64,000 bases of DNA, from contig VFIW01000102.1 in the NCBI GenBank assembly GCA_006386115.1, positions 86,785 through 150,784 on the forward strand. Direction: 5' to 3'. Of the stretch, positions 28,934-64,000 are shown piece by piece. Made by a program: the position numbers and the translations under genes. Source of the DNA: Globisporangium splendens. Its lineage: Eukaryota > Oomycota > Peronosporomycetes > Pythiales > Pythiaceae. The stretch's first letter is position 1. Every line of letters starts with the position of its first letter. A model generated the notes under the pieces. It saw only the letters and a program-made list of their open reading frames with translations, ran no database searches and was not told where the DNA came from.

Positions 28934-29086
28934 TGGGCCTCGCCGGGGGAGAGTGCAATCCCCGGGAGACCAGTCGCAGGCTCACAACAAGCTGCTCTGC
29001 CAGGCGACACCCTCAAAAATGAATGTGAAAATAAAGCCGGGTTTGTCGCCCGGCAATCAGTTTTCACACTGATTAGAACAGAGAAA
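28934..29086 (-). ncRNA. U2 snRNA, 3' portion only (downstream of Ut-1)
   Basis: Minus strand: CTCTGTTCTAATCAG, stem IIa ATCAGT/ACTGAT, stem IIb GCCGGG/CCCGGC around CGACAAA, a T-rich Sm-like stretch, stem III with GCAGCTTGTTG, and stem IV CCGGGGATTGCAC with CCCCCGG. Stem III differs from the 36153, 43536, 52136 and 59373 copies, so this is an older or separate U2 version. It lies between Ut-1 and the Ut-A start. Confidence 0.72.
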
Positions 29087-29128
29087 GAATGTATATTTAC
29101 CAATTAACGATCAAATAAAGAGGTTACC

Positions 29129-32100
29129 TCATTGTGACCATGTTGCGTCTCTTGGGTTTGGAGGGCCGTTCCCTACGTGGGTGATACCCTGGTAGCCTTG
29201 GGGAGGCTGGGTTCGCACGATGTCCTTTTTATGTGTAGTCACTACACGCTCTGGTTGGTGCCGGTGGGTCCCCCCGGACCACGTGTCGGCGCCTCTGGTG
29301 TCCCGGCTGTCGCACTGTATGTGCGTCGGGGTTGTCGGCGCCTCTGGTGTCCCGGCTGTCGCACTGTATGTGCGTCGGGCCGGTCGTGTCGCTGGTGTCC
29401 CGGCTGTCGCACTGTATGCGCGTCGGGGTTGTCGTGTCGCTGGCGCCCCGGCTGTCGCACTGAATGCGCTTCGGGGTCGTCGGGTGGCTGTGGGGTCGCT
29501 TGTCGATCTGCCTGCGCGCGCCGGAGGCGTGGGCCTCCGTGCTTCTCCGTCTGTCCCCCCTCTGGTCGGAGCTGGTGCTGATCTGGGCCCTGCTGCTGTC
29601 CCGGCTATGCTCGTGGACAGTGTGGACCGTCTCACTTGCGTTCCGGTGCCGCTTGGTTGCCCGCGTTGAAGTTCCGGTGTCGGTCGCGTCGTTTCGGTCG
29701 CTGGAGCTCGGTGCACCGGAGCTCCACCTCGGAGCGTCGGGCGCCGGTGCCGGGGCTGGTTGGGCTGGTTCCGCACGGGCGGGAGTCGGTGTTGGAGCTC
29801 GGGTTGTCGTCCTGGAGGTGCTGGATGCCGGTGATGGAGCGTCTGGTGTCGCTGCCGTTCGTCTGGTGCCGAGTTCGTGGCTGGCCGATCTCCCTGTTGT
29901 TGCTCCGGTGCCGGTGCCGTGATTCGCACGCGTCGTTTTCGCTGCTCCGGGGCTGGTGCCCGGGTGTCCGTGGGTTGGGGCCGGCGTTCTGGTGCTGGAT
30001 CATGTTGGAGTTGAGCAGGACTGGCCTGGAGTCGTCGGTCTGGAGTCTGGATCTGGACTGGATCTGGATGCGTCGTCGCTTGCGTCTCCACACGTCGGGT
30101 TGGCCCTCGGTGTAGGGCGCAGTGGAGGTTCCAGATGCGGCGGCTCGCCTTGATCGCTTCGGTCGAGATGGTGGTGTTGAGCCGCCTGGCATCCTTCTTC
30201 AGGAGCCCGAGCTCCTCGGTGTATACCTTGAAGTTCCCAGGTAGCACCGAGCCGAGCGAGCCGTACACCAGTGCAGATAGGTGTACCGTCCATCCTTGCT
30301 GCATCAAATGCACCTTGATGGGTTGGTACTTCTCAATCTTGCGCTGGGCTGAGGCCGCTAGGCTGGAGAACTCGGGTCCGTCCTGCTGGTGGTCTTCGTA
30401 GGTGATCGCCAGGTCGGCGACCACCACCGTCTTGCTCCTGGTGTCGAAGAGCTGGAGGTCTGGCCGGAGCTGACCTGCCATACCTTCGACCGTCTCGTTG
30501 ACTCGGAGTTGGAGTCGCTCCTGCGATCGGAGCACTCGGGGCTGGAGTGTGTCGGTAATCAGCTTCAACGCGGAGTCGTGGCGCTTGGTCACCGCGTCGC
30601 TGGTGCCGGGGCAGTGGTTCAGCACGTGGGCTAGTGTCTCCGTGCTCCGGCACTCAGCGTACCGGCATGTGGCGTTCGTACGCACCCTTTTCCGCTTGAG
30701 CACCGACCTGGTGTCCAGCTGATTGAGGCGCGCTTGGACTGCAAAGACATAGTCATTGTCCCACATGCCGGTGCCACGCGTGAGGAATGAGCTCCCGGGA
30801 CCGCCCTGAGCTCGCACCGTGCGTCCTTGGTCCGACATCTCCTTCCACCTGTTTAGGTGTGCATTCTTCATGTGGAGCTTGACCTGTCGGAGCACGGTGG
30901 TGTGCTCGAGCCAGTCCCTGGAGCTCGGGGTCTTCAATTGGAGCCACTGTCGCTCGCCGGAGCTGGGGTCGACGACATCGGCTAGTCGGAGCTGGTGTGT
31001 GGCCAGGTGGCGCTGGATGTCTGTCCAGAGCGAGCCGATGTCGCCGTTCCTTCGCTTCCTGATGTTCGTGAGCGATGAGTCCAGGTCGGAGTTGAGGAAG
31101 CGTTGGATGGCTTCCTCGGTGCGCTCCTTCCAGTACTCTTCATCCAGCCGGTAGCGCTTTCGTATGATCTGCGTGATCTGCGTGCGCGCCACCGCCTGGA
31201 TGGTGTGGTCTTTGGAGTGGAGCATCTGCCACCCATGAGCTATCTGCAGTGCTGCATGGAGCTCGGTGAGTGGCAGTAGCCCCAGGCCTCCATGGGATGT
31301 CGGTGCGTACATGAACGCTGTGGTGGCGGAGCTGGGTAGGCGGAGGAGGTGCCTCAGACCCTTGCTCAGTACGCGGTCGAAACCCTGGAGTTGGGAGTGC
31401 AGGGGCCTGAGATGGCGGAGCGCGTATTCTACCTGGGGGTAGATGTACGTCTTCACTGCCTTCAGGATCTGCCATGGTGCCAAAGGTGAGCGGAGGAGTG
31501 CCACCACGTTCTTTTTCAACTCCCCCAGCTTTGGCACCAAGGCAAACCTGCGCTGGATGTGGTCAAAGCCATCCCCGATACCTAGGTATGCATAGCTGTC
31601 GCTGAGAGTGAGCCTGGGTATCGGGGTGCCGTCCAGATGCAGCTGGAGCTCGGTGTCGAGCTCAGGGTTCCCACGGGAGTTCGTGGTTACCGCCAGCAGA
31701 GCGCACTTGGACGGGTTGGCTCGCATCGTGGTCCATTTCAGGAAACGTTCCACTAGTTGGTGCGCTGACCTGATGCCGCTCGCGGAGTCACTGAAGATCT
31801 TGATGTCGTCGGCGTACGCCGAGACACATGGTCTGAAGTTCTCCGCGAGCGGCACTCCCACGCCAGGTAGCTCCTGGAGCCCTCGGAGCAGCGGTATCAG
31901 GGCCGCAATGAAGAGGTACGGACTGAGCGGGCAACCCTGGTACACGCCGATCTCCTGGCGGATGGGGTCCGTGGGGCCATCGTGGGCGTTGTTCACGACA
32001 AAGTGGGAGTCCTCGTAGATGTTCTGAGCGCGCTCGATGAAAGCAGCATCGACTCGGAGCATCCCGAGGACTCGCCACATGAGCTCCTGTGGCAGGGACC

Positions 32101-35100
32101 CGAAGGCATTCTTCAGGTCATACCACACGTTGTACAACTTCCTGTGCATCCGTCTCGTTTGGTCGAGGAGCGAGGTGCTCAGGAAGTTGTGTTCGTGGCA
32201 TCCATTGAATGCTCTGAATCCCTTCTGCGCTAGTGAGAATCGCTCGTTGGTGTCCATCCAACGAGTGAATCTCTTCGCAAGGATGCCTGAGTAGAGCTTG
32301 TAGATGCATTGTTGCAAGCATATCGGTCTCCAGTTGCTGGGTTGGTTCGGGTCTCCCTTTTTGTATAGGAGCCTGACCGTGCCCACTTTCCACGCAGTGG
32401 GGACCTTTTTGTGCTTCCAGCAGAAGCTGAAGGCTGCGTGGAGTGCGGGTAGCAACTGGAGCCGGAAGTGCTTATATACATCGTGGCCGATGCCATCCAG
32501 TCCGGGGCTGGAGGCACCGTTCACGATCTGGAGTTGGTCCTCGATCTCATCTATCGTGAGGTCATCGGTTAATGCCTCTCGGACCTGCTCCGGGGGTGGC
32601 AGCCGCTGGAGCACCGCTCGGAACGGTGCTCCTACATCGCTGTCAAAGTCAAACACCATGTTCGGTGTGTTGACGCCTTGGAAGAATGCGTACAGGTCCT
32701 CCCTGCCGATGGGACAGGTGGTGTCTTCCATTGGACCCTCAGTGACGTCCTCGTTCACTCCTCGGAGGAGTTCCTGTACGCACTCTTTTTCTTTTTGCTC
32801 AAATTTGAGCCGGAGCTTTGATCTCAGGATTGCCGCTTTCACTCGGCCCACCCGCCGACGTGCTTTTTGGATGCGTCCTTGTTGGCTGGGTTCAGCCCGC
32901 TGTGCGATGATCAGGTCGTCGAGTGCTTCTTCAAGTCGCGCTTCACGGTGCTGTGTGCTTGGTCGTGGTGGTCGCATCATCGTCTTGGTCGCTGTGGTTT
33001 TCTTCTTGGTCTTCGTCATTGATCGGGGTTTCTTCGTTGTGGAGTACTCCTGGAGTAGGTCATACATTTGCATAGTAAGTGCTGTAATATATCCTTCTCC
33101 GGTTTCCCAATCCTCACAGTCGGTGATCTTGGTGGCCATCTTCTTGGCGAACCTCTCTATTATCGCTCGGCTCTTTTCATCCTCGTTCTCACTCAGCGCT
33201 CGTAGTTGCAGTCTTGGTCGTTTTGCCGGGATCGTGCCTGGTTCCAGTCGTACAGGTGCGTACACCTCTCCCTCATCACGGCGCACTACTTCTTCGTCAT
33301 CGTCGCTGGTTTCCTTCATTTCCTCATCGACGGTGGCCTCTGGGTCTGGCCGCTGCGAGGTCGTCTTCCGTTGGATCGGGGTCCAGCATCGGTCATCGCC
33401 AGCACCGTGCACCGCGCACACCGATTTCGTTGCGGCGTGGTCGAGTGCACGGTTTGCGAGTGCGTCCGCTTGGGTGTTTGCCTTGCGGTCGATGTGGTGG
33501 AGCTCGAAGCTGTCGAGGCTCCGTAGGCATCCGAGGATGCGGTTTCTAAGTGCTCTCAGACGCTTATTGCCGCATGCATATATGCCTCGGACCTGCCTGA
33601 TGACGAGTATGCTATCCCCTTCCACTCGGAGTCGCCTTGCTCCATGTCGTTTGGCCGCCTGGACGCCGTCGAGTAACGCTGTGTACTCGGCGGTGTTGTT
33701 TGTGTTGAAGTTCTCGGGTAGAAAGTGGTGGCATGTCCAGAGGATGGCTCCTCCGGGTTCATAGAGGGCTGATCCAGCGCCTCCTTTCCCTGGATTTCCT
33801 GGACATGCTCCATCAAATCTCAATAACCATGGCCGGCCGTCGTCTGGTGCTTCTGGCGTGATCGCTTGGGTCGTTGTCGTGGTCGCCGGGGTCTCGTTGA
33901 TAGCTTCAGTCGTGATTGGCGTCGTAGGAGTGGTTGCGGATCGCCATCGAGACGGTCTCGCCGTCAAAACTCGCTCATTTCGGTCAGGACGGGCCGCTGG
34001 CACCGTGTCTGACCTCCAATTCAATGGGTTCGCGGTGAGGGTTCGCTCTCCTTGAGTCCTCGTTCTCATCGCTGTACTAGCCGCCTCCAAAATTGCATTT
34101 CTGGGGCCCAAACTACTGTTCCGAGCAGTAGTTGGACGTGCTAGAGCATTCTCTGGCACGGGCGGAGCGTTCTCATGGCTCAAACCACTGCTCGGAGCAG
34201 TAGTTGTGCGTGCATTTGCACTTTCCCCCACAGAAATTGCATTTCTGGGGCCCAAACTACTGTTCCGAGCAGTAGTTGGACGTGCTAGAGCATTCTCTGG
34301 CACGGGCGGAGCGTTCTCATGGCTCAAACTACTGCTCGGAGCAGTAGTTGTGCGTGCATTTGCACTTTCCCCCACAGAAATTGCATTTCTGGGGCCCAAA
34401 CTACTGTTCCGAGCAGTAGTTAGGTTCGCGCGGGGTGGCCGCGCACGCGGAAGTGCACTTTCGGTCGGTTCTGGTCTTGCATTTGCTCCTGTGCCACCAG
34501 CAATAGCTGACACAGGCCCTGGACTAGCACCAGATGCTTGGTCCCTGGTTGCATTTGCACCAAATCTGGTCAAAAGTGCACTTTCCGTACTTGGGCTGGT
34601 CGCTGGAGCTGGGTTCGTAGGTGCACCAGGCCCAAATTGGGTCAAAAGTGCCGGTTCTGCACTCAGACCAGTCATTGGAGCTGGGTCCTGGGTCATCTCA
34701 CATGTTGCGGTGGTTGTGCGTGGAGTTCCTGGCCTGAGATCAGCCGTTACGGCGGTCCCAGGGCCAGAAACCGCAATTGCCGCATCCAAACTTGAGTTTT
34801 CTTCGTCAAAAAAGCTGGTCTGGGCCGGAGGGATGTCGATTTGTGCTCGGGCACTGTCGGTTGACTCCACCCATGCGTCGTCGTCTTCGTAGGTGCTCGG
34901 ATTCTCGTTTTCGTATGTTGGGTTTTCGGTCTGGGGGCCGAAAACCGTCGCTGTAGGGGAATAATCATAGTTAATAACCATTTCATTTGAGTTCACTATA
35001 CTTACCTGAGTGTTGGTTGTTGTCGTTGTCGTCGCTGGAGGGGGGACTGGGTGTGCGGCGTCGTTGTCTTGGTGTACTCGGTACCGGGTGAGCGTCAGCA

Positions 35101-35812
35101 GGTCGGTGAGGAACACCGTCGTCTGGGAGGGGGGTACACTGGCACCTTGCTGACGTTCGTCATCGGGGAGGGGAGGGGCGAGGCGGCGCCTCTTGGCACC
35201 CTCGGTTTGGTAGCCGACGGTACTCGTGCACGTTGAAGTGCGCTCGGGTACCGTGGCGGGGGGGGACATCGTGGTTGGGGATGGCCCTGGCTCGGGGATG
35301 CTGCTTGGCGCGGCTGTCTCCGGGTCAGGACCATCATTCTGTGGCGCAAGGCCAAGTGTGGTAGTGTTCTGGGCGGTGCTGCATCCACGTTCGTGGTTAG
35401 CAGCAGCACCGCGGGTGGTAAAGTGCCGGTCGCACGCACACTCGCACGTGAAGATGTCCACAAAGTGGTCATTCTCGTGTGCGAGTGCGCGGTGGCGGCC
35501 GAGCACGAACATGTGGGGGGCGCTGAACCCACACAGAGTGCACACGTAGTGTGGTCCTCTGTGCGGGTGCACCTCCGTGACCGTGGCGCGGGTTTGGGGT
35601 GGTGGTGGCGGCGGCGGGTCTTCGTGAGCGTGGTGGTGGTGGTGGTCTTCGTCGTTGTCGAGGTCGTCCTCGACGTCGCTGTCCTCGTCGCTGTCTAGGA
35701 GGAAGCCGGCATCGCTGCCGAGCGACCCCTGACTGGACGAGACAGTGGAGGCGTTGCTCCCGATGGAGTCCGCGCGGTCGCGGGTCTCGAAACGGGGCCA
35801 GTAGAGACGCAT
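29129..35812 (-). CDS. Ut-1 polyprotein: zinc fingers, RNase H, reverse transcriptase, restriction-like endonuclease
   Basis: 2227 codons open without a break. Order: acidic N-terminus; C2H2 finger (CTLCGFSAPHMFVLGRHRAL, about 91-112) and a CCHC-type finger (CACDRHF..H..C, to 144); a Thr/Pro-rich region with the 144-bp repeat; RNase H about 655-795 with all four carboxylates (RFDGACPGNPG, NNTAEYTALL, VEGDSILVI, RKANTQADALA); RT about 1140-1450 (NWRPICLQQ, WYDLKNAFGS, YQGCPLSP, YADDIKIFSD near 1331); knuckle CRYAECRSTETLAHVLNHC about 1716; endonuclease RPDLQLF..VVVADLAITYED..KIEKYQ about 1780; Pro/Arg/Gln-rich tail. The protein nicks the target and primes reverse transcription there. RNase H upstream of RT is the known mark of oomycete Utopia. 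A 49-bp repeat unit shifts the tail frame, so it ends about 120 residues later than Ut-2 and Ut-5. The ATG gives MRLYWP, shared by all copies with a visible start. Confidence 0.88.
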   Translation of the reverse strand: MRLYWPRFETRDRADSIGSNASTVSSSQGSLGSDAGFLLDSDEDSDVEDDLDNDEDHHHHHAHEDPPPPPPPQTRATVTEVHPHRGPHYVCTLCGFSAPHMFVLGRHRALAHENDHFVDIFTCECACDRHFTTRGAAANHERGCSTAQNTTTLGLAPQNDGPDPETAAPSSIPEPGPSPTTMSPPATVPERTSTCTSTVGYQTEGAKRRRLAPPLPDDERQQGASVPPSQTTVFLTDLLTLTRYRVHQDNDAAHPVPPPATTTTTTNTQVSIVNSNEMVINYDYSPTATVFGPQTENPTYENENPSTYEDDDAWVESTDSARAQIDIPPAQTSFFDEENSSLDAAIAVSGPGTAVTADLRPGTPRTTTATCEMTQDPAPMTGLSAEPALLTQFGPGAPTNPAPATSPSTESALLTRFGANATRDQASGASPGPVSAIAGGTGANARPEPTESALPRARPPRANLTTARNSSLGPRNAISVGESANARTTTAPSSSLSHENAPPVPENALARPTTARNSSLGPRNAISVGESANARTTTAPSSGLSHENAPPVPENALARPTTARNSSLGPRNAILEAASTAMRTRTQGERTLTANPLNWRSDTVPAARPDRNERVLTARPSRWRSATTPTTPITTEAINETPATTTTTQAITPEAPDDGRPWLLRFDGACPGNPGKGGAGSALYEPGGAILWTCHHFLPENFNTNNTAEYTALLDGVQAAKRHGARRLRVEGDSILVIRQVRGIYACGNKRLRALRNRILGCLRSLDSFELHHIDRKANTQADALANRALDHAATKSVCAVHGAGDDRCWTPIQRKTTSQRPDPEATVDEEMKETSDDDEEVVRRDEGEVYAPVRLEPGTIPAKRPRLQLRALSENEDEKSRAIIERFAKKMATKITDCEDWETGEGYITALTMQMYDLLQEYSTTKKPRSMTKTKKKTTATKTMMRPPRPSTQHREARLEEALDDLIIAQRAEPSQQGRIQKARRRVGRVKAAILRSKLRLKFEQKEKECVQELLRGVNEDVTEGPMEDTTCPIGREDLYAFFQGVNTPNMVFDFDSDVGAPFRAVLQRLPPPEQVREALTDDLTIDEIEDQLQIVNGASSPGLDGIGHDVYKHFRLQLLPALHAAFSFCWKHKKVPTAWKVGTVRLLYKKGDPNQPSNWRPICLQQCIYKLYSGILAKRFTRWMDTNERFSLAQKGFRAFNGCHEHNFLSTSLLDQTRRMHRKLYNVWYDLKNAFGSLPQELMWRVLGMLRVDAAFIERAQNIYEDSHFVVNNAHDGPTDPIRQEIGVYQGCPLSPYLFIAALIPLLRGLQELPGVGVPLAENFRPCVSAYADDIKIFSDSASGIRSAHQLVERFLKWTTMRANPSKCALLAVTTNSRGNPELDTELQLHLDGTPIPRLTLSDSYAYLGIGDGFDHIQRRFALVPKLGELKKNVVALLRSPLAPWQILKAVKTYIYPQVEYALRHLRPLHSQLQGFDRVLSKGLRHLLRLPSSATTAFMYAPTSHGGLGLLPLTELHAALQIAHGWQMLHSKDHTIQAVARTQITQIIRKRYRLDEEYWKERTEEAIQRFLNSDLDSSLTNIRKRRNGDIGSLWTDIQRHLATHQLRLADVVDPSSGERQWLQLKTPSSRDWLEHTTVLRQVKLHMKNAHLNRWKEMSDQGRTVRAQGGPGSSFLTRGTGMWDNDYVFAVQARLNQLDTRSVLKRKRVRTNATCRYAECRSTETLAHVLNHCPGTSDAVTKRHDSALKLITDTLQPRVLRSQERLQLRVNETVEGMAGQLRPDLQLFDTRSKTVVVADLAITYEDHQQDGPEFSSLAASAQRKIEKYQPIKVHLMQQGWTVHLSALVYGSLGSVLPGNFKVYTEELGLLKKDARRLNTTISTEAIKASRRIWNLHCALHRGPTRRVETQATTHPDPVQIQTPDRRLQASPAQLQHDPAPERRPQPTDTRAPAPEQRKRRVRITAPAPEQQQGDRPATNSAPDERQRHQTLHHRHPAPPGRQPELQHRLPPVRNQPNQPRHRRPTLRGGAPVHRAPATETTRPTPELQRGQPSGTGTQVRRSTLSTSIAGTAAGPRSAPAPTRGGTDGEARRPTPPARAGRSTSDPTATRRPRSAFSATAGAPATRQPRRAYSATAGTPATRPARRTYSATAGTPEAPTTPTHIQCDSRDTRGADTWSGGTHRHQPERVVTTHKKDIVRTQPPQGYQGITHVGNGPPNPRDATWSQ
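29297..29470 (-). repeat. 48-bp coding repeat in the Ut-1 C-terminal tail
   Basis: Three units plus a variant, encoding SATAGTPATRPARRAY-type 16-residue repeats. The unit starting at 29297 is 49 bp and shifts the frame of the tail relative to the other copies. Confidence 0.75.
34091..34421 (-). repeat. 144-bp coding minisatellite, Ut-1 (about 2.3 units)
   Basis: Each 144-bp unit encodes 48 residues (ARPTTARNSSLGPRNAISVG and the remainder ending PPVPENAL). Each contains two palindromes: AACTACTGCTC-G-GAGCAGTAGTT (11-bp arms) and AACTACTGTTC-C-GAGCAGTAGTT (one G-T mismatch). Ut-1 has two full units; the first palindrome of one unit carries a C-for-T change (AACCACTGCTC). Confidence 0.88.
34951..35005 (-). 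other. Intron-like segment in the Ut-1 reading frame (55 nt)
   Basis: On the minus strand CAG|GTAAGTATAG..TTATTAACTATGATT..CCCCTACAG has a perfect donor, a branch-site-like sequence and an acceptor. Read through, it is open and the polyprotein continues. Removed, the frame shifts and ends at 34747, giving a protein of about 336 residues that keeps only the zinc fingers. Confidence 0.45.
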
Positions 35813-36152
35813 ACCAACTGTTAATATATTACGGTGAAATTATCTATTCCTTGTGTTCTCTTGTAGCCCTGCGTGTCTTCTTACTTTTGGTGTTTTTCTT
35901 TTGTTTTAGTTCGCTCTAGAAGCGTGGCAAAGTGCTCTTTTGTGGGGTCGACTTTCCTCTTTTTTTTTTTTTTCTTCTTTTTTTTTTTTTGACACGCAAG
36001 TTACACTACCGCCTGTCTACTCTGCGCCTGTCTAATTAGGTACTGTTTCCGACTACCGAAAGAGCAGAAAGAACAATAGCGAAATAGAAGGGTAGCAAAT
36101 ATAAACAACACAGTAAAGATAACAAGGGAATAGACAACTACCGTAATATAGA
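35813..36152 (-). other. Utopia 5' leader and U2 downstream spacer (Ut-1)
   Basis: 340 bp between the U2 remnant and the Ut-1 ATG. It contains a long homopolymer tract (about 35960-35990; A-rich on the coding strand) whose length differs between copies. The rest is AT-rich compared with the element. It must hold the element 5' UTR and any promoter or 5'-processing signal. No U2 5' sequence is seen in it. Confidence 0.5.
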
Positions 36153-36310
36153 GGGTTGGCCTCGCCGGGGGAAGGTGCAATCCCCGGGAAACCGAGCCAG
36201 AGACGAGGCAGCAAGCTGCTCGCAGTCCGACCGAGCTCAGAAATAAATGTGAAAATAAAGCCGGGTTTGTCGCCCGGCAATCAGTTTTCACACTGATTAG
36301 AACAGAGAAA
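36153..36310 (-). ncRNA. U2 snRNA, 3' portion only (downstream of Ut-2)
   Basis: Minus strand from TTTCTCTGTTCTAATCAG: stem IIa ATCAGT/ACTGAT, stem IIb GCCGGGCGACAAACCCGGC, Sm-like CATTTATTTCTGAG, stem III containing GAGCAGCTTGCTGC, and stem IV CCGGGG-ATTGCACCTTC-CCCCGG, ending GGCCAACCC. Order, spacing and total length (about 155 nt) follow U2 from stem IIa to the 3' end. The 5' region with GUAGUA is missing. Confidence 0.78.
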
Positions 36311-55800: not shown

Positions 55801-58800
55801 CTCGGACCTGCTCCGGGGGTGGCAGCCGCTGGAGCACCGCTCGGAACGGTGCTCCTACATCGCTGTCAAAGTCAAACACCATGTTCGGTGTGTTGACGCC
55901 TTGGAAGAATGCGTACAGGTCCTCCCTGCCGATGGGACAGGTGGTGTCTTCCATTGGACCCTCAGTGACGTCCTCGTTCACTCCTCGGAGGAGTTCCTGT
56001 ACGCACTCTTTTTCTTTTTGCTCAAATTTGAGCCGGAGCTTTGATCTCAGGATTGCCGCTTTCACTCGGCCCACCCGCCGACGTGCTTTTTGGATGCGTC
56101 CTTGTTGGCTGGGTTCAGCCCGCTGTGCGATGATCAGGTCGTCGAGTGCTTCTTCAAGTCGCGCTTCACGGTGCTGTGTGCTTGGTCGTGGTGGTCGCAT
56201 CATCGTCTTGGTCGCTGTGGTTTTCTTCTTGGTCTTCATCATTGATCGGGGTTTCTTCGTTGTGGAGTACTCCTGGAGTAGGTCATACATTTGCATAGTA
56301 AGTGCTGTAATATATCCTTCTCCGGTTTCCCAATCCTCACAGTCGGTGATCTTGGTGGCCATCTTCTTGGCGAACCTCTCTATTATCGCTCGGCTCTTTT
56401 CATCCTCGTTCTCACTCAGCGCTCGTAGTTGCAGTCTTGGTCGTTTTGCCGGGATCGTGCCTGGTTCCAGTCGTACAGGTGCGTACACCTCTCCCTCATC
56501 ACGGCGCACTACTTCTTCGTCATCGTCGCTGGTTTCCTTCATTTCCTCATCGACGGTGGCCTCTGGGTCTGGCCGCTGCGAGGTCGTCTTCCGTTGGATC
56601 GGGGTCCAGCATCGGTCATCGCCAGCACCGTGCACCGCGCACACCGATTTCGTTGCGGCGTGGTCGAGTGCACGGTTTGCGAGTGCGTCCGCTTGGGTGT
56701 TTGCCTTGCGGTCGATGTGGTGGAGCTCGAAGCTGTCGAGGCTCCGTAGGCATCCGAGGATGCGGTTTCTAAGTGCTCTCAGACGCTTATTGCCGCATGC
56801 ATATATGCCTCGGACCTGCCTGATGACGAGTATGCTATCCCCTTCCACTCGGAGTCGCCTTGCTCCATGTCGTTTGGCCGCCTGGACGCCGTCGAGTAAC
56901 GCTGTGTACTCGGCGGTGTTGTTTGTGTTGAAGTTCTCGGGTAGAAAGTGGTGGCATGTCCAGAGGATGGCTCCTCCGGGTTCATAGAGGGCTGATCCAG
57001 CGCCTCCTTTCCCTGGATTTCCTGGACATGCTCCATCAAATCTCAATAACCATGGCCGGCCGTCGTCTGGTGCTTCTGGCGTGATCGCTTGGGTCGTTGT
57101 CGTGGTCGCCGGGGTCTCGTTGATAGCTTCAGTCGTGATTGGCGTCGTAGGAGTGGTTGCGGATCGCCATCGAGACGGTCTCGCCGTCAAAACTCGCTCA
57201 TTTCGGTCAGGACGGGCCGCTGGCACCGTGTCTGACCTCCAATTCAATGGGTTCGCGGTGAGGGTTCGCTCTCCTTGAGTCCTCGTTCTCATCGCTGTAC
57301 TAGCCGCCTCCAAAATTGCATTTCTGGGGCCCAAACTACTGTTCCGAGCAGTAGTTGGACGTGCTAGAGCATTCTCTGGCACGGGCGGAGCGTTCTCATG
57401 GCTCAAACCACTGCTCGGAGCAGTAGTTGTGCGTGCATTTGCACTTTCCCCCACAGAAATTGCATTTCTGGGGCCCAAACTACTGTTCCGAGCAGTAGTT
57501 GGACGTGCTAGAGCATTCTCTGGCACGGGCGGAGCGTTCTCATGGCTCAAACTACTGCTCGGAGCAGTAGTTGTGCGTGCATTTGCACTTTCCCCCACAG
57601 AAATTGCATTTCTGGGGCCCAAACTACTGTTCCGAGCAGTAGTTAGGTTCGCGCGGGGTGGCCGCGCACGCGGAAGTGCACTTTCGGTCGGTTCTGGTCT
57701 TGCATTTGCTCCTGTGCCACCAGCAATAGCTGACACAGGCCCTGGACTAGCACCAGATGCTTGGTCCCTGGTTGCATTTGCACCAAATCTGGTCAAAAGT
57801 GCACTTTCCGTACTTGGGCTGGTCGCTGGAGCTGGGTTCGTAGGTGCACCAGGCCCAAATTGGGTCAAAAGTGCCGGTTCTGCACTCAGACCAGTCATTG
57901 GAGCTGGGTCCTGGGTCATCTCACATGTTGCGGTGGTTGTGCGTGGAGTTCCTGGCCTGAGATCAGCCGTTACGGCGGTCCCAGGGCCAGAAACCGCAAT
58001 TGCCGCATCCAAACTTGAGTTTTCTTCGTCAAAAAAGCTGGTCTGGGCCGGAGGGATGTCGATTTGTGCTCGGGCACTGTCGGTTGACTCCACCCATGCG
58101 TCGTCGTCTTCGTAGGTGCTCGGATTCTCGTTTTCGTATGTTGGGTTTTCGGTCTGGGGGCCGAAAACCGTCGCTGTAGGGGAATAATCATAGTTAATAA
58201 CCATTTCATTTGAGTTCACTATACTTACCTGAGTGTTGGTTGTTGTCGTTGTCGTCGCTGGAGGGGGGACTGGGTGTGCGGCGTCGTTGTCTTGGTGTAC
58301 TCGGTACCGGGTGAGCGTCAGCAGGTCGGTGAGGAACACCGTCGTCTGGGAGGGGGGTACACTGGCACCTTGCTGACGTTCGTCATCGGGGAGGGGAGGG
58401 GCGAGGCGGCGCCTCTTGGCACCCTCGGTTTGGTAGCCGACGGTACTCGTGCACGTTGAAGTGCGCTCGGGTACCGTGGCGAGGGGGGACATCGTGGTTG
58501 GGGATGGCCCTGGCTCGGGGATGCTGCTTGGCGCGGCTGTCTCCGGGTCAGGACCATCATTCTGTGGCGCAAGGCCAAGTGTGGTAGTGTTCTGGGCGGT
58601 GCTGCATCCACGTTCGTGGTTAGCAGCAGCACCGCGGGTGGTAAAGTGCCGGTCGCACGCACACTCGCACGTGAAGATGTCCACAAAGTGGTCATTCTCG
58701 TGTGCGAGTGCGCGGTGGCGGCCGAGCACGAACATGTGGGGGGCGCTGAACCCACACAGAGTGCACACGTAGTGTGGTCCTCTGTGCGGGTGCACCTCCG

Positions 58801-59032
58801 TGACCGTGGCGCGGGTTTGGGGTGGTGGTGGCGGCGGCGGGTCTTCGTGAGCGTGGTGGTGGTGGTCTTCGTCGTTGTCGAGGTCGTCCTCGACGTCGCT
58901 GTCCTCGTCGCTGTCTAGGAGGAAGCCGGCATCGCTGCCGAGCGACCCCTGACTGGACGAGACAGTGGAGGCGTTGCTCCCGATGGAGTCCGCGCGGTCG
59001 CGGGTCTCGAAACGGGGCCAGTAGAGACGCAT
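52856..59032 (-). CDS. Ut-4 polyprotein, open through all enzymatic domains
   Basis: 2058 codons without a stop: two zinc fingers, two minisatellite units, RNase H, RT (YADD), CCHC knuckle and restriction-like endonuclease as described for Ut-1. A one-base loss at about 53301-53305 (CGTCGTTGCG where others have CGTCGTTTGCG) shifts the Pro/Arg tail, which ends ...AAPERK at 52856. One change near the endonuclease (RVNQTVEG instead of RVNETVEG) is private. With Ut-1 this is the best candidate for an active copy, since the tail lies beyond the endonuclease. Confidence 0.87.
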   Translation of the reverse strand: MRLYWPRFETRDRADSIGSNASTVSSSQGSLGSDAGFLLDSDEDSDVEDDLDNDEDHHHHAHEDPPPPPPPQTRATVTEVHPHRGPHYVCTLCGFSAPHMFVLGRHRALAHENDHFVDIFTCECACDRHFTTRGAAANHERGCSTAQNTTTLGLAPQNDGPDPETAAPSSIPEPGPSPTTMSPLATVPERTSTCTSTVGYQTEGAKRRRLAPPLPDDERQQGASVPPSQTTVFLTDLLTLTRYRVHQDNDAAHPVPPPATTTTTTNTQVSIVNSNEMVINYDYSPTATVFGPQTENPTYENENPSTYEDDDAWVESTDSARAQIDIPPAQTSFFDEENSSLDAAIAVSGPGTAVTADLRPGTPRTTTATCEMTQDPAPMTGLSAEPALLTQFGPGAPTNPAPATSPSTESALLTRFGANATRDQASGASPGPVSAIAGGTGANARPEPTESALPRARPPRANLTTARNSSLGPRNAISVGESANARTTTAPSSSLSHENAPPVPENALARPTTARNSSLGPRNAISVGESANARTTTAPSSGLSHENAPPVPENALARPTTARNSSLGPRNAILEAASTAMRTRTQGERTLTANPLNWRSDTVPAARPDRNERVLTARPSRWRSATTPTTPITTEAINETPATTTTTQAITPEAPDDGRPWLLRFDGACPGNPGKGGAGSALYEPGGAILWTCHHFLPENFNTNNTAEYTALLDGVQAAKRHGARRLRVEGDSILVIRQVRGIYACGNKRLRALRNRILGCLRSLDSFELHHIDRKANTQADALANRALDHAATKSVCAVHGAGDDRCWTPIQRKTTSQRPDPEATVDEEMKETSDDDEEVVRRDEGEVYAPVRLEPGTIPAKRPRLQLRALSENEDEKSRAIIERFAKKMATKITDCEDWETGEGYITALTMQMYDLLQEYSTTKKPRSMMKTKKKTTATKTMMRPPRPSTQHREARLEEALDDLIIAQRAEPSQQGRIQKARRRVGRVKAAILRSKLRLKFEQKEKECVQELLRGVNEDVTEGPMEDTTCPIGREDLYAFFQGVNTPNMVFDFDSDVGAPFRAVLQRLPPPEQVREALTDDLTIDEIEDQLQIVNGASSPGLDGIGHDVYKHFRLQLLPALHAAFSFCWKHKKVPTAWKVGTVRLLYKKGDPNQPSNWRPICLQQCIYKLYSGILAKRFTRWMDTNERFSLAQKGFRAFNGCHEHNFLSTSLLDQTRRMHRKLYNVWYDLKNAFGSLPQELMWRVLGMLRVDAAFIERAQNIYEDSHFVVNNAHDGPTDPIRQEIGVYQGCPLSPYLFIAALIPLLRGLQELPGVGVPLAENFRPCVSAYADDIKIFSDSASGIRSAHQLVERFLKWTTMRANPSKCALLAVTTNSRGNPELDTELQLHLDGTPIPRLTLSDSYAYLGIGDGFDHIQRRFALVPKLGELKKNVVALLRSPLAPWQILKAVKTYIYPQVEYALRHLRPLHSQLQGFDRVLSKGLRHLLRLPSSATTAFMYAPTSHGGLGLLPLTELHAALQIAHGWQMLHSKDHTIQAVARTQITQIIRKRYRLDEEYWKERTEEAIQRFLNSDLDSSLTNIRKRRNGDIGSLWTDIQRHLATHQLRLADVVDPSSGERQWLQLKTPSSRDWLEHTTVLRQVKLHMKNAHLNRWKEMSDQGRTVRAQGGPGSSFLTRGTGMWDNDYVFAVQARLNQLDTRSVLKRKRVRTNATCRYAECRSTETLAHVLNHCPGTSDAVTKRHDSALKLITDTLQPRVLRSQERLQLRVNQTVEGMAGQLRPDLQLFDTRSKTVVVADLAITYEDHQQDGPEFSSLAASAQRKIEKYQPIKVHLMQQGWTVHLSALVYGSLGSVLPGNFKVYTEELGLLKKDARRLNTTISTEAIKASRRIWNLHCALHRGPTRRVETQRRRIQIQSRSRLQTDDSRPVLLNSNMIQHQNAGPNPRTPGHQPRSSENDACESRHRHRSNNREIGQPRTRHQTNGSDTRRSSTGIQHLQDDNPSSNTDSRPCGTSPTSPGTGARRSEVELRCTELQRPKRRDRHRNFNAGNQAAPERK
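57314..57644 (-). repeat. 144-bp coding minisatellite, Ut-4 (about 2.3 units)
   Basis: Two full units, including the same variant palindrome (AACCACTGCTC) as Ut-1. Confidence 0.88.
58174..58228 (-). other. Intron-like segment, Ut-4 (55 nt)
   Basis: Same sequence as in Ut-1, in frame when read through. Confidence 0.45.
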
Positions 59033-59372
59033 ACCAACTGTTAATATATTACGGTGAAATTATCTATTCCTTGTGTTCTCTTGTAGCCCTGCGTGTCTTC
59101 TTACTTTTGGTGTTTTTCTTTTGTTTTAGTTCGCTCTAGAAGCGTGGCAAAGTGCTCTTTTGTGGGGTCGACTTTCCTCTTTTTTTTTTTTTTCTTCTTT
59201 TTTTTTTTTTGACACGCAAGTTACACTACCGCCTGTCTACTCTGCGCCTGTCTGATTAGGTACTGTTTCCGACTACCGAAAGAGCAGAAAGAACAATAGC
59301 GAAATAGAAGGGTAGCAAATATAAACAACACAGTAAAGATAACAAGGGAATAGACAACTACCGTAATATAGA

Positions 59373-59530
59373 GGGTTGGCCTCGCCGGGGGAAGGTGCAA
59401 TCCCCGGGAAACCGAGCCAGAGACGAGGCAGCAAGCTGCTCGCAGTCCGACCGAGCTCAGAAATAAATGTGAAAATAAAGCCGGGTTTGTCGCCCGGCAA
59501 TCAGTTTTCACACTGATTAGAACAGAGAAA
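59373..59530 (-). ncRNA. U2 snRNA, 3' portion only (downstream of Ut-5)
   Basis: Same as the 36153-36310 copy over the stems. The 5' part is absent. Confidence 0.77.
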
Positions 59531-59703
59531 GAATGTATATTTACCAATTAACGATCAAATAAAGAGGTTATCAGGTATAAAGAGGTTACCTCATTGTGAC
59601 CATGTTGCGTCTCTTGGGTTTGGAGGGCCGTTCCCTACGTGGGTGATGCCCTGGTAGCCTTGGGGAGGCTGGGTTCGCACGATGTCCTTTTGATGTGTAG
59701 TCA

Positions 59704-62700
59704 CTACACGCTCTGGTTGGTGCCGGTGGGTCCCCCCGGACCACGTGTCGGCGCCTCTGGTGTCCCGGCTGTCGCACTGAATGTGCGTCGGGCCGGTCGT
59801 GTCGCTGGTGTCCCGGCTGTCGCACTGTATGCGCGTCGGGGTTGTCGTGTCGCTGGTGCCCCGGCTGTCGCACTGAATGCGCTTCGGGGTCGTCGGGTGG
59901 CTGTGGGGTCGCTTGTCGATCTGCCTGCGCGCGCCGGAGGCGTGGGCCTCCGTGCTTCTCCGTCTGTCCCCCCTCTGGTCGGAGCTGGTGCTGATCTTGG
60001 TCCTGCTGCTGTCCCGGCTATGCTCGTGGACAGTGTGGACCGTCTCACTTGCGTTCCGGTGCCGCTTGGTTGCCCGCGTTGAAGTTCCGGTGTCGGTCGC
60101 GTCGTTTCGGTCGCTGGAGCTCGGTGCACCGGAGCTCCACCTCGGAGCGTCGGGCGCCGGTGCCGGGGCTGGTTGGGCTGGTTCCGCACGGGCGGGAGTC
60201 GGTGTTGGAGCTCGGGTTGTCGTCCTGGAGGTGCTGGATGCCGGTGCTGGAGCGTCTGGTGTCGCTGCCGTTCGTCTGGTGCCGAGTTCGTGGCTGGCCG
60301 ATCTCCCTGTTGCTGCTCCGGTGCCGGTGCCGTGATTCGCACGCGTCGTTTTCGCTGCTCCGGGGCTGGTGCCCGGGTGTCCGTGGGTTGGGGCCGGCGT
60401 TCTGGTGCTGGATCATGTTGGAGTTGAGCAGGACTGGCCTGGAGTCGTCGGTCTGGAGTCTGGATCTGGACTGGATCTGGATGCGTCGTCGCTTGCGTCT
60501 CCACACGTCGGGTTGGCCCTCGGTGTAGGGCGCAGTGGAGGTTCCAGATGCGGCGGCTCGCCTTGATCGCTTCGGTCGAGATGGTGGTGTCGAGCCGCCT
60601 GGCATCCTTCTTCAGGAGCCCGAGCTCCTCGGTGTATACCTTGAAGTTCCCAGGTAGCACCGAGCCGAGCGAGCCGTACACCAGTGCAAATAGGTGTACC
60701 GTCCATCCTTGCTGCATCAAATGCACCTTGATGGGTTGGTACTTCTCAATCTTGCGCTGGGCTGAGGCCGCTAGGCTGGAGAACTCGGGTCCGTCCTGCT
60801 GGTGGTCTTCGTAGGTGATCGCCAGGTCGGCGACCACCACCGTCTTGCTCCTGGTGTCGAAGAGCTGGAGGTCTGGCCGGAGCTGACCTGCCATACCTTC
60901 GACCGTCTCGTTGACTCGGAGTTGGAGTCGCTCCTGCGATCGGAGCACTCGGGGCTGGAGTGTGTCGGTAATCAGCTTCAACGCGGAGTCGTGGCGCTTG
61001 GTCACCGCGTCGCTGGTGCCGGGGCAGTGGTTCAGCACGTGGGCTAGTGTCTCCGTGCTCCGGCACTCAGCGTACCGGCATGTGGCGTTCGTACGCACCC
61101 TTTTCCGCTTGAGCACCGACCTGGTGTCCAGCTGATTGAGGCGCGCTTGGACTGCAAAGACATAGTCATTGTCCCACATGCCGGTGCCACGCGTGAGGAA
61201 TGAGCTCCCGGGACCGCCCTGAGCTCGCACCGTGCGTCCTTGGTCCGACATCTCCTTCCACCTGTTTAGGTGTGCATTCTTCATGTGGAGCTTGACCTGT
61301 CGGAGCACGGTGGTGTGCTCGAGCCAGTCCCTGGAGCTCGGGGTCTTCAATTGGAGCCACTGTCGCTCGCCGGAGCTGGGGTCGACGACATCGGCTAGTC
61401 GGAGCTGGTGTGTGGCCAGGTGGCGCTGGATGTCTGTCCAGAGCGAGCCGATGTCGCCGTTCCTTCGCTTCCTGATGTTCGTGAGCGATGAGTCCAGGTC
61501 GGAGTTGAGGAAGCGTTGGATGGCTTCCTCGGTGCGCTCCTTCCAGTACTCTTCATCCAGCCGGTAGCGCTTTCGTATGATCTGCGTGATCTGCGTGCGC
61601 GCCACCGCCTGGATGGTGTGGTCTTTGGAGTGGAGCATCTGCCACCCATGAGCTATCTGCAGTGCTGCATGGAGCTCGGTGAGTGGCAGTAGCCCCAGGC
61701 CTCCATGGGATGTCGGTGCGTACATGAACGCTGTGGTGGCGGAGCTGGGTAGGCGGAGGAGGTGCCTCAGACCCTTGCTCAGTACGCGGTCGAAACCCTG
61801 GAGTTGGGAGTGCAGGGGCCTGAGATGGCGGAGCGCGTATTCTACCTGGGGGTAGATGTACGTCTTCACTGCCTTCAGGATCTGCCATGGTGCCAAAGGT
61901 GAGCGGAGGAGTGCCACCACGTTCTTTTTCAACTCCCCCAGCTTTGGCACCAAGGCAAACCTGCGCTGGATGTGGTCAAAGCCATCCCCGATACCTAGGT
62001 ATGCATAGCTGTCGCTGAGAGTGAGCCTGGGTATCGGGGTGCCGTCCAGATGCAGCTGGAGCTCGGTGTCGAGCTCAGGGTTCCCACGGGAGTTCGTGGT
62101 TACCGCCAGCAGAGCGCACTTGGACGGGTTGGCTCGCATCGTGGTCCATTTCAGGAAGCGTTCCACTAGTTGGTGCGCTGACCTGATGCCGCTCGCGGAG
62201 TCACTGAAGATCTTGATGTCGTCGGCGTACGCCGAGACACATGGTCTGAAGTTCTCCGCGAGCGGCACTCCCACGCCAGGTAGCTCCTGGAGCCCTCGGA
62301 GCAGCGGTATCAGGGCCGCAATGAAGAGGTACGGACTGAGCGGGCAACCCTGGTACACGCCGATCTCCTGGCGGATGGGGTCCGTGGGGCCATCGTGGGC
62401 GTTGTTCACGACAAAGTGGGAGTCCTCGTAGATGTTCTGAGCGCGCTCGATGAAAGCAGCATCGACTCGGAGCATCCCGAGGACTCGCCACATGAGCTCC
62501 TGTGGCAGGGACCCGAAGGCATTCTTCAGGTCATACCACACGTTGTACAACTTCCTGTGCATCCGTCTCGTTTGGTCGAGGAGCGAGGTGCTCAGGAAGT
62601 TGTGTTCGTGGCATCCATTGAATGCTCTGAATCCCTTCTGCGCTAGTGAGAATCGCTCGTTGGTGTCCATCCAACGAGTGAATCTCTTCGCAAGGATGCC

Positions 62701-64000
62701 TGAGTAGAGCTTGTAGATGCATTGTTGCAAGCATATCGGTCTCCAGTTGCTGGGTTGGTTCGGGTCTCCCTTTTTGTATAGGAGCCTGACCGTGCCCACT
62801 TTCCACGCAGTGGGGACCTTTTTGTGCTTCCAGCAGAAGCTGAAGGCTGCGTGGAGTGCGGGTAGCAACTGGAGCCGGAAGTGCTTATATACATCGTGGC
62901 CGATGCCATCCAGTCCGGGGCTGGAGGCACCGTTCACGATCTGGAGTTGGTCCTCGATCTCATCTATCGTGAGGTCATCGGTTAATGCCTCTCGGACCTG
63001 CTCCGGGGGTGGCAGCCGCTGGAGCACCGCTCGGAACGGTGCTCCTACATCGCTGTCAAAGTCAAACACCATGTTCGGTGTGTTGACGCCTTGGAAGAAT
63101 GCGTACAGGTCCTCCCTGCCGATGGGACAGGTGGTGTCTTCCATTGGACCCTCAGTGACGTCCTCGTTCACTCCTCGGAGGAGTTCCTGTACGCACTCTT
63201 TTTCTTTTTGCTCAAATTTGAGCCGGAGCTTTGATCTCAGGATTGCCGCTTTCACTCGGCCCACCCGCCGACGTGCTTTTTGGATGCGTCCTTGTTGGCT
63301 GGGTTCAGCCCGCTGTGCGATGATCAGGTCGTCGAGTGCTTCTTCAAGTCGCGCTTCACGGTGCTGTGTGCTTGGTCGTGGTGGTCGCATCATCGTCTTG
63401 GTCGCTGTGGTTTTCTTCTTGGTCTTCATCATTGATCGGGGTTTCTTCGTTGTGGAGTACTCCTGGAGTAGGTCATACATTTGCATAGTAAGTGCTGTAA
63501 TATATCCTTCTCCGGTTTCCCAATCCTCACAGTCGGTGATCTTGGTGGCCATCTTCTTGGCGAACCTCTCTATTATCGCTCGGCTCTTTTCATCCTCGTT
63601 CTCACTCAGCGCTCGTAGTTGCAGTCTTGGTCGTTTTGCCGGAATCGTGCCTGGTTCCAGTCGTACAGGTGCGTACACCTCTCCCTCATCACGGCGCACT
63701 ACTTCTTCTTCGTCATCGTCGCTGGTTTCCTTCATTTCCTCATCGATGGTGGCCTCTGGGTCTGGCCGCTGCGAGGTCGTCTTCCGTTGGATCGGGGTCC
63801 AGCATCGGTCATCGCCAGCACCGTGCACCGCGCACACCGATTTCGTTGCGGCGTGGTCGAGTGCACGGTTTGCGAGTGCGTCCGCTTGGGTGTTTGCCTT
63901 GCGGTCGATGTGGTGGAGCTCGAAGCTGTCGAGGCTCCGTAGGCATCCGAGGATGCGGTTTCTAAGTGCTCTCAGACGCTTATTGCCGCATGCATATATG
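59704..64000 (-). CDS. Ut-5 polyprotein, C-terminal part (partial)
   Basis: Open from the window edge to a TAG at 59704. It covers the end of RNase H, the acidic linker (DDDEEEVVRR, one Glu more than Ut-1, as in Ut-2), RT with YADD, the CCHC knuckle and the endonuclease, with an unshifted Pro/Arg tail ending TGTNQSV. Private changes include VHLFALVYG and RRLDTTIS. Its N-terminal half lies outside the window, so whether it is intact is unknown. Confidence 0.85.
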   Translation of the reverse strand, partial: IYACGNKRLRALRNRILGCLRSLDSFELHHIDRKANTQADALANRALDHAATKSVCAVHGAGDDRCWTPIQRKTTSQRPDPEATIDEEMKETSDDDEEEVVRRDEGEVYAPVRLEPGTIPAKRPRLQLRALSENEDEKSRAIIERFAKKMATKITDCEDWETGEGYITALTMQMYDLLQEYSTTKKPRSMMKTKKKTTATKTMMRPPRPSTQHREARLEEALDDLIIAQRAEPSQQGRIQKARRRVGRVKAAILRSKLRLKFEQKEKECVQELLRGVNEDVTEGPMEDTTCPIGREDLYAFFQGVNTPNMVFDFDSDVGAPFRAVLQRLPPPEQVREALTDDLTIDEIEDQLQIVNGASSPGLDGIGHDVYKHFRLQLLPALHAAFSFCWKHKKVPTAWKVGTVRLLYKKGDPNQPSNWRPICLQQCIYKLYSGILAKRFTRWMDTNERFSLAQKGFRAFNGCHEHNFLSTSLLDQTRRMHRKLYNVWYDLKNAFGSLPQELMWRVLGMLRVDAAFIERAQNIYEDSHFVVNNAHDGPTDPIRQEIGVYQGCPLSPYLFIAALIPLLRGLQELPGVGVPLAENFRPCVSAYADDIKIFSDSASGIRSAHQLVERFLKWTTMRANPSKCALLAVTTNSRGNPELDTELQLHLDGTPIPRLTLSDSYAYLGIGDGFDHIQRRFALVPKLGELKKNVVALLRSPLAPWQILKAVKTYIYPQVEYALRHLRPLHSQLQGFDRVLSKGLRHLLRLPSSATTAFMYAPTSHGGLGLLPLTELHAALQIAHGWQMLHSKDHTIQAVARTQITQIIRKRYRLDEEYWKERTEEAIQRFLNSDLDSSLTNIRKRRNGDIGSLWTDIQRHLATHQLRLADVVDPSSGERQWLQLKTPSSRDWLEHTTVLRQVKLHMKNAHLNRWKEMSDQGRTVRAQGGPGSSFLTRGTGMWDNDYVFAVQARLNQLDTRSVLKRKRVRTNATCRYAECRSTETLAHVLNHCPGTSDAVTKRHDSALKLITDTLQPRVLRSQERLQLRVNETVEGMAGQLRPDLQLFDTRSKTVVVADLAITYEDHQQDGPEFSSLAASAQRKIEKYQPIKVHLMQQGWTVHLFALVYGSLGSVLPGNFKVYTEELGLLKKDARRLDTTISTEAIKASRRIWNLHCALHRGPTRRVETQATTHPDPVQIQTPDRRLQASPAQLQHDPAPERRPQPTDTRAPAPEQRKRRVRITAPAPEQQQGDRPATNSAPDERQRHQTLQHRHPAPPGRQPELQHRLPPVRNQPNQPRHRRPTLRGGAPVHRAPATETTRPTPELQRGQPSGTGTQVRRSTLSTSIAGTAAGPRSAPAPTRGGTDGEARRPTPPARAGRSTSDPTATRRPRSAFSATAGAPATRQPRRAYSATAGTPATRPARRTFSATAGTPEAPTRGPGGPTGTNQSV
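59759..59880 (-). repeat. 48-bp coding repeat in the Ut-5 C-terminal tail
   Basis: One unit fewer (about two and a half) than Ut-2, frame kept. Confidence 0.7.

What the first reader, a model, noticed from the sequence alone, without database searches (positions are those of the whole stretch)
28934..64000. Head-to-tail array of five Utopia copies, each followed by a U2 snRNA 3' remnant
All copies lie on the minus strand. ATG positions 35812, 43198, 51795 and 59032 give periods of 7386, 8597 and 7237 bp. Each unit is element plus about 155 bp of U2 3' sequence plus spacer. Utopia is known to insert into U2 genes, but a long tandem of element/U2-remnant units acting like a satellite is not something I know to be described. 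It suggests amplification by unequal exchange rather than separate insertions.
Basis: partly seen in the sequence, partly recalled or inferred. Interest (0 to 1): 0.9.

Follow-up and report, generated by a model that had tools for sequence, protein, structure and literature searches.

The report
Retrotransposons that rebuild their target genes
In the oomycete Globisporangium splendens, jumping genes that insert into the essential U2, U1 and U5 splicing-RNA genes appear to carry a spare copy of the part they cut off, so each insertion rebuilds a whole gene in front of itself and can stack up in long arrays without killing the host.

Summary
The array is real: four complete Utopia copies and one cut by the contig end, all minus strand, each followed by about 156 nt of U2 scoring as U2. 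A sixth, older copy and a terminal U2 part at 18688 were missed. The window is the end of contig C7 of the Globisporangium splendens draft genome, which holds 36 scored U2 matches.

The U2 piece does not belong to the copy before it. Where Utopia families meet, it matches the FOLLOWING element at 9 of 9 junctions (0-2 edits, against 27-28 to the other type). So the element starts with its own U2 nt 39-190. Insertion at 38|39 would rebuild an intact U2 upstream and push the old 3' part downstream; repeating this makes the array. All 3 intact U2 genes scored sit directly in front of Utopia. Relatives show the same layout in U1 (2 of 2 intact genes) and U5 (1 of 3 matches). The 2015 Utopia paper saw intact U2 upstream in Phytophthora but inferred deletion.

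Neighbouring copies are more alike and mosaic, so exchange also acts. Co-transcription and homology-guided 5' joining are inferred. No other species' DNA could be read here.

The parts
59527..64000 (-). Utopia family A copy 1, 3' part only (contig end cuts it)
   Evidence: 98.6% to family A over 4.5 kb; contig C7 has 150784 bases = window end
52290..59526 (-). Family A copy 2, whole unit: U2 nt39-end (59371-59526), leader, ORF 52856-59032 (2058 aa), 3' UTR
43690..52289 (-). Family A copy 3, whole unit: U2 part 52134-52289, leader, ORF from 51795 broken into two frames, expanded 144-bp repeat
36307..43689 (-). Family A copy 4, whole unit: U2 part 43534-43689, leader, ORF from 43198 broken into two frames
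29083..36306 (-). Family A copy 5, whole unit: U2 part 36151-36306, leader, ORF 29129-35812 (2227 aa; RNase H 666-789, RT 1153-1403)
18848..29082 (-). Older sixth copy (E) with B-type U2 part (28928-29082) and B-type leader/N-terminus; RT part 19004-21400; broken by a Copia element
21968..26759 (-). Copia LTR element nested in copy E; 266-bp LTRs (21968-22233, 26494-26759) identical
   Evidence: LTRs; RVT_2 and integrase domains
18688..18847 (-). Terminal U2 3' part (type C), not followed by a Utopia leader: read as the displaced 3' part of the locus's original U2 gene
   Evidence: 61.5 bits U2; 36-41 edits from types A and B, leader mismatch 51 of 100

Best explanation
These are oomycete Utopia non-LTR retrotransposons whose mobile unit begins with the 3' part of the target gene itself: U2 nt 39 to end, then leader, ORF and 3' UTR. 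Shown by sequence: the insertion point (U2 38|39); the linkage of the U2 3' part with the following element; one intact U2 at the 5' end of each U2 array whose 5' end is assembled; the same layout in U1 and U5 genes. Inferred: (1) the RNA starts at the U2 promoter and reads through into the element; (2) target-primed reverse transcription at 38|39 copies the element and then the U2 part of the RNA; (3) the end of the cDNA joins the target's own U2 nt 1-38 by homology. The host's nt 1-38 plus the element's nt 39-190 then make a whole U2 gene again, and the old 3' part is pushed behind the new element. The rebuilt U2 remains a target, so later insertions stack up at the 5' end. The oldest, displaced 3' part lies at the far end (window 18688). 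Exchange and conversion among copies then homogenise the array.
For: Linkage: 34 of 35 U2 3' parts compared (the motif pattern missed C97:197-381, which has one changed letter). 33 are followed by a Utopia; U2 type and leader type agree in 32, the exception being a damaged one at the contig end (C131:547916). Of the 30 with an element in front, 9 are switches between A and B-type (B, D, E) elements; all 9 match the element behind (0-2 edits; 27-28 to the other type). A U2 variant (T at nt 85) occurs in 4 B/D-headed units, two of them behind an A copy, and in the terminal type C, but in no A-headed unit, so linkage reaches at least nt 85. U2 nt 1-38 was found only at the 3 intact genes and at C112 in the fetched stretches, never between units. 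Polarity: intact U2 3 of 3 scored, intact U1 2 of 2 and U5 1 of 3 matches stand directly before an element; the six arrays whose 5' end is assembled start with an intact gene. Two U2 loci whose upstream flanks share only 43 bp (93%), ending at the junction, have the same downstream unit (97.0% and 99.5% to one reference copy). U1: the 9 remnants read start at nt 11, and leader type fits the following family at both switches that could be read. U5: remnant starts at about nt 52; a gene without element has a different 3' flank. The terminal 3' parts read (window 18688; C123:68610) are divergent and lack a leader. In C131, A copies nearer the intact U2 are less diverged (rho 0.73, p 0.016, 10 copies).
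Against: No transcript or insertion assay. The assembly is a draft from PacBio reads of about 14.6 kb mean (10.2 Gb / 0.7 M), so long-range order is uncertain. Gene counts are lower bounds (46 of 519, 41 of 862 and 46 of 1462 candidates scored for U2, U1 and U5). Neighbouring copies are more alike and mosaic, so array history is not insertion alone. The copy directly behind the intact U2 at C131:361979 is the most diverged (2.35%), mostly in one 2-kb patch, and that U2 has one substitution and one missing T within nt 1-38. The C7 copies show no age trend, and the C131:361979 array none. For U1 the body is identical in P and Q families, so only the leader shows linkage; at one of the two U1 switches the element behind is known to be P only from the next 3' end, its partial RT match (53%) not telling. 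In U5 the intact gene's 5' and 3' parts carry matching stem changes (my reading), which needs the 5' part to have been copied too or to have co-evolved. The other two U5 matches have no element leader. No terminal U5 part was found. Stem-loop III of the U2 parts is not more stable than shuffles.
Confidence: 0.72

Rival explanations
1. Long target-site duplication: the top strand is cut at or beyond the snRNA 3' end, so the target's own 3' part is doubled. The gene is rebuilt, but the 3' part comes from the target, not the element.
For: Gives the same intact-gene-then-element-then-remnant layout. U1 bodies are identical between P and Q families, so the U1 data alone do not exclude it.
Against: The two U2 parts flanking an element should be copies of one another. 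At the 9 switches the U2 parts before and behind an element are of different types (27-28 edits) and each goes with the element behind it. The two U5 3' parts flanking the first C67 element differ at 3 of 67 positions, which later change could also explain.
Confidence: 0.12
2. Kojima and Jurka 2015: insertion deletes U2 nt 1-38 and upstream sequence; the intact U2 upstream is simply the neighbouring gene of a U2 cluster.
For: Their stated reading of Phytophthora arrays (PMC4640811). The truncated U2 here also lack nt 1-38.
Against: Predicts no link between U2 3'-part type and the following family. Needs the same deletion with the same end point in every copy, at U2 loci with unrelated flanks, and again in U1 and U5. 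No U2 nt 1-38 lies between units.
Confidence: 0.06
3. The array arose mainly by unequal exchange of a single founding unit.
For: Neighbours more alike (p 0.006 for 16 of 19 aligned A copies, 0.008 for 8 of 12 B/D/E copies), and 511 of 861 and 67 of 153 informative site pairs fail the four-gamete test; two adjacent copies in the window share one C-terminal frame change.
Against: Does not create the founding unit, nor the interleaving of A, B and D families with switches at U2 nt 39. Neighbour likeness is also expected if each new copy comes from the current 5'-most one. Probably a contributor, not the origin.
Confidence: 0.08
4. Assembly artefact: the tandem order is made by the hybrid assembler.
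For: Draft hybrid assembly; one N joins C131 at 388273; contigs C7, C97, C131 and C34 end inside arrays.
Against: Units of 6-9 kb are shorter than the mean PacBio read, the junctions recur on three contigs with different neighbours, and the layout recurs in U1 and U5 on other contigs. Raw reads were not seen.
Confidence: 0.02

Closest known systems
Utopia (Kojima and Jurka 2015, PMC4640811; main text parts 1-4 of 5 read)
   Same: Same kind of protein (RNase H upstream of RT, RLE motifs), same U2 38|39 site, U2 3' part after each copy, arrays with several families, low-copy U2 with more broken than intact genes, U2 intact upstream of copies.
   Different: They place the U2 part after the element and infer a deletion. 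Here it is the 5' part of the next element and rebuilds the gene. [quoted passage not shown] no U1- or U5-inserted Utopia relative.
R2/R1 of arthropod rRNA genes (PMC2718515, passages read)
   Same: Target-primed reverse transcription; [quoted passage not shown] some R1 transcripts are inferred to carry upstream 28S sequence (6-27 nt) that anneals to the target and gives precise 5' junctions.
   Different: The 28S gene stays interrupted (recalled). Here the whole 3' part of the target gene travels and the gene is restored.
Prophages and integrative elements in tRNA genes (recalled)
   Same: The element carries the 3' end of the target gene and restores it on insertion.
   Different: Those use integrases and DNA circles in prokaryotes; this is an RNA-copied element and stacks repeatedly.
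Long target-site duplication elements such as R9 of rotifers (recalled)
   Same: Target sequence present on both sides.
   Different: Flanking U2 parts here differ at the family switches and go with the element behind.

Membership tests
Utopia (oomycete) | RT with RNase H domain upstream | tested here: met
   RNase H-type 666-789 and RT 1153-1403 in family A; same order in B
Utopia (oomycete) | C-terminal CCHC finger and restriction-like endonuclease | tested here: met
   Conserved CR.PGCS..ETLAHVLNHC and RPD...VIADLAV stretches in 10 aligned proteins; motif assignment recalled, no Pfam domain there
Utopia (oomycete) | 3' junction at U2 nt 38|39 | tested here: met
Utopia (oomycete) | RT phylogeny inside Utopia/NeSL | tested here: inconclusive
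   Quick tree with Phytophthora, Peronospora, Pythium and unnamed proteins; no Repbase Utopia reference rows were available
Utopia (oomycete) | U2 target (for the U1 and U5 families) | tested here: not met
   C123, C34 and C125 elements lie in U1, C67 in U5; they are relatives (49-53% RT identity), not U2 elements
R2-like co-transcribed element | RNA starts in the target gene | not testable with these tools
   no transcript data
Long target-site duplication | Both flanks are copies of one target | tested here: not met
   U2 parts on the two sides differ in type at 9 of 9 family switches; not testable in U1, where the bodies are identical
Target-restoring integration (as in tRNA-gene phages) | Intact target at one end, displaced 3' part at the other | tested here: met
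   The six arrays with an assembled 5' end start with an intact gene; terminal parts were read in two (window 18688, C123:68610), not found in C67. 'Works like', not membership

The most novel reading that the evidence does not exclude
A clade of non-LTR retrotransposons lives in U1, U2 and U5 genes by using the snRNA gene as its own 5' end. Each jump overwrites the 3' part of the host's splicing RNA with the element's version, so every intact U1 and U2 gene scored in this assembly carries a 3' part delivered by a retrotransposon. Families carry diverged U2 3' parts, and the arrays are an ordered record of insertions. This would explain how several families persist in a handful of essential genes.
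Probability: 0.62. Interest if true: 0.92.

Novelty: new variant of a known kind. Interest (0 to 1): 0.85.

Why it matters
Kojima and Jurka called the upkeep of several Utopia lineages in about ten intact U2 genes a surprise needing population-genetic theory. If insertion restores its target, the puzzle goes away: an essential low-copy gene can be hit again and again. It would be a eukaryotic, RNA-copied counterpart of phages that restore tRNA genes, would mean that retrotransposons rewrite the 3' parts of spliceosomal RNAs, and suggests how site-specific insertion could leave a target gene working. It also makes testable predictions for every oomycete genome.

Tried and rejected
Simple higher-order repeat: the regular U2 scores and spacings on C131 looked like one, but the distance tables show no multi-unit blocks of near-zero difference in register; dropped.

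U2 parts as pseudogene noise: rejected, all six window hits exceed the Rfam cut-off. Elsewhere C131:547887 (43.3 bits) and C112 (34) fall below it.

Orphan U2 nt 1-38 as proof of a non-restoring insertion: C112:288210 has U2 1-38 only, but it lies between copies of a 12-bp repeat and looks like a retroposed fragment (my reading); not used.

Stem-loop III stability by shuffling: no signal (99-194 of 500 shuffles at least as stable in the five sequences), so folding energy gives no support for U2 constraint; only the Rfam scores do.

Other species: U2 pattern in viral contigs 0 hits; protein profile in prokaryote and viral contigs matched only at the RNase H part (3 and 6 loci). Metagenome contigs were not open to scanning.

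Dropped rows: one search aligned 19 A units (384667, 547916 and the contig-cut copies not aligned). One search used 16 of these 19 (361979, 499433 and C97 7972 left out) and 8 of 12 B/D/E units (430530, 436690, 471606, 115866 left out). One search dropped 250-bp windows with more than 6 differences (3 in one of the ten C131 copies; 8 in three other copies) and the 144-bp repeat. One search covered 34 of 35 U2 3' parts. Of 15 U1 matches, 11 were read (not C123:119674, 113299, 82521 or C34:1050406). The 13.8 kb between C123:82521 and C123:68610 was not read.

Full report
OBSERVATION. The window carries six U2 matches on the minus strand, all above the Rfam cut-off. Each is U2 from nt 39 on (TCTGTTCTAATCAGT...), directly after the end of a Utopia copy; what stands before it is element, not U2 nt 1-38. 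Four family-A copies are complete, one is cut by the end of contig C7 (150,784 bp, equal to the window end), and a sixth, older copy with a B-type head lies at 18848-29082, broken by a Copia element with identical 266-bp LTRs. The ORFs have RNase H upstream of RT, as described for oomycete Utopia (PMC4640811). The best-matching solved structures are R2 retrotransposon proteins.

GENOME CONTEXT. The genome shows 36 U2 matches (46 of 519 candidates scored, so a lower bound). Three are intact (132-142 bits): C131:361979, C131:400149, C97:15508, named here by the first target base (nt 39). One is a 5' fragment (C112, 34 bits). The other 32 are truncated: 24 on C131, 2 on C97, 6 on C7. From the intact U2 at C131:400149, 21 truncated U2 parts follow head to tail over about 149 kb to the contig end. 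A single N at C131:388273 cuts the other C131 array.

WHOSE IS THE U2 PIECE? Three Utopia families alternate on C131: A; B; and D, which shares B's first 2 kb at 96% but has only 69% protein identity over the RT part. U2 3' parts come in types: A, B (heading B, D and the window's old copy E) and C (the terminal one). They are nearly identical up to about nt 100 and then diverge strongly. I compared 34 of 35 with the element in front and behind. Of 33 with a Utopia behind, U2 type and leader type agree in 32; the other (C131:547916, last 1.3 kb of the contig) has lost the U2 end and leader start and is closest to A. Among the 30 with an element in front, 9 are junctions between A and B-type elements (C131 430530, 442850, 458938, 478019, 486776, 499433, 515242, 540771; C7 115866). 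In all 9 the U2 part matches the element behind (0-2 edits) and not the type of the one in front (27-28). A variant at U2 nt 85 follows the same rule, so the linked block starts at or before nt 85. The unit is therefore [U2 nt 39-end, leader, ORF, 3' UTR].

WHAT FOLLOWS. If an element carrying U2 39-190 at its front inserts at 38|39, then host nt 1-38 plus element nt 39-190 make a whole U2, and the old 3' part ends up behind the element. All three intact U2 genes scored are exactly that: directly followed by an A leader and an A copy. In the fetched stretches U2 nt 1-38 occurs only at these three genes and at C112, never between units. Upstream, C131:361979 and C131:400149 share only 43 bp (93%), ending at the junction, while downstream each matches the same reference unit (97.0% over 7.6 kb and 99.5% over 7.3 kb); C131:400149 and C97:15508 have flanks 96% alike over 3.6 kb and may be alleles. 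The last U2 part in the window (type C) has no leader behind it and is 36-41 edits from types A and B, as expected of the original gene's displaced 3' part.

INDEPENDENT REPLICATION IN U1 AND U5. A search with the RT part found relatives at 49-53% identity on C34, C123, C125 and C67 (46 of 464 candidates scored). C34, C123 and C125 lie in U1 genes: 15 U1 matches, 2 intact, 13 truncated (41 of 862 candidates scored). I read 11 of the 15. The 9 truncated ones read start at U1 nt 11. Leaders P and Q fit the family behind, including two switches: C123:107084 has a P end in front, leader Q and a 52% (Q) element behind; C123:95429 has a Q end in front, leader P and, at the next junction, a P end (the RT match between, 53% over part of the query, does not tell the family). 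A third switch, C125:417736 (Q end, P leader), has no scored element behind it. Both intact U1 genes head arrays and have different upstream flanks. C123:68610 is a decayed U1 part (94.5% over 127 nt) behind a Q end, without leader; I take it as the far end of the C123 array, though 13.8 kb before it was not read. C67 lies in U5: an intact U5 heads two elements, and between them is a U5 part from about nt 52; cmscan does not report it, but it is identical over 67 nt to the free U5 gene on C162, whose 3' flank lacks the leader, and differs at 3 positions from the intact C67 gene. The third U5 match, C123:67018 (69.7 bits), also lacks the leader. No terminal U5 part was seen behind the second C67 element. 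U4 (1 match) and U6 (2) lie on contigs without a scored relative. The three sites lie directly behind the segments that pair with the pre-mRNA: the U1 5' end, U2 GUAGUA and U5 loop I (established knowledge, recalled). In the tree the P and Q families and the U5 family are separate lineages (quick method, long branches flagged for U5 and P).

HOW THE ARRAY GROWS. Two processes are visible. (1) Insertion at the rebuilt gene: A copies nearer the intact U2 at C131:400149 are less diverged (rho 0.71, p 0.023; rho 0.73, p 0.016 after dropping patches; 10 copies, not independent). The C7 copies show no trend, and the copy directly behind C131:361979 is the most diverged, mainly in one 2-kb patch that may be unpolished sequence. 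(2) Exchange or conversion: neighbours are more alike than chance and site pairs often fail the four-gamete test. Likeness of neighbours is also expected if the newest copy, next to the U2 promoter, is the source of the next one; the mosaicism is not.

MECHANISM. Shown: site, linkage, polarity, the same layout in three genes. Inferred: transcription from the snRNA promoter through the element; target-primed reverse transcription; joining of the cDNA to the host's 5' part by homology. In R1 and R2, co-transcripts and annealing of upstream target sequence are proposed (PMC2718515, passages). U5 gives a hint: the intact C67 gene differs from the C162 gene at matched positions on both sides of the insertion point (my reading), as if the 5' part had been copied too, or had co-evolved.

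KNOWN OR NEW. PMC4640811 (main text parts 1-4 of 5 read; supplements not open) reports Utopia at U2 38|39, arrays with several families in Phytophthora, no nt 1-38 fragment but intact U2 upstream, and infers deletion, while leaving open duplication followed by loss. It does not, in the parts read, propose that the element carries the U2 3' part. It lists Keno and Utopia (U2), Dada-U1 and Dada-U6 as the reported snRNA-gene transposons. My paper searches (listings, with passages of PMC2718515 and PMC13188248 read) showed no U1- or U5-inserted non-LTR element and no target-rebuilding one. Subscription papers and Repbase Reports were not searched.

Noticed in passing
window 34090-34421, 41334-41809, 48713-50404, 57313-57644: A 144-bp (48 aa) tandem repeat inside the family A ORF varies in copy number from about 2 to about 11 between otherwise near-identical copies.
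   Followed up: partly
window 21968-26759: Copia element with identical 266-bp LTRs nested in the old Utopia copy: a young insertion into an old one.
   Followed up: partly
L016-L017 (C131:430530-442849): Family D shares its first 2 kb (U2 part, leader, N-terminus) with B at 96% but has only 69% protein identity over the RT part: a 5' module with the U2 part seems to have been swapped between families.
   Followed up: partly
L034 (C112:288210): Isolated U2 nt 1-38 between two copies of AAATTTGCAACT; looks like a retroposed 5' U2 fragment.
   Followed up: partly
L012 (C131:388.9-394.9 kb): Four tRNA genes with the same score, three minus and one plus, upstream of the U2 gene at 400149.
   Followed up: no
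L052 (C123:67018): A U5 match of 69.7 bits with changed loop letters, 1.5 kb beyond the U1 part at C123:68610.
   Followed up: no
L047, L049 (C67 and C162 U5): The two full-scoring U5 genes differ at paired positions on both sides of the insertion point, as compensating changes.
   Followed up: partly
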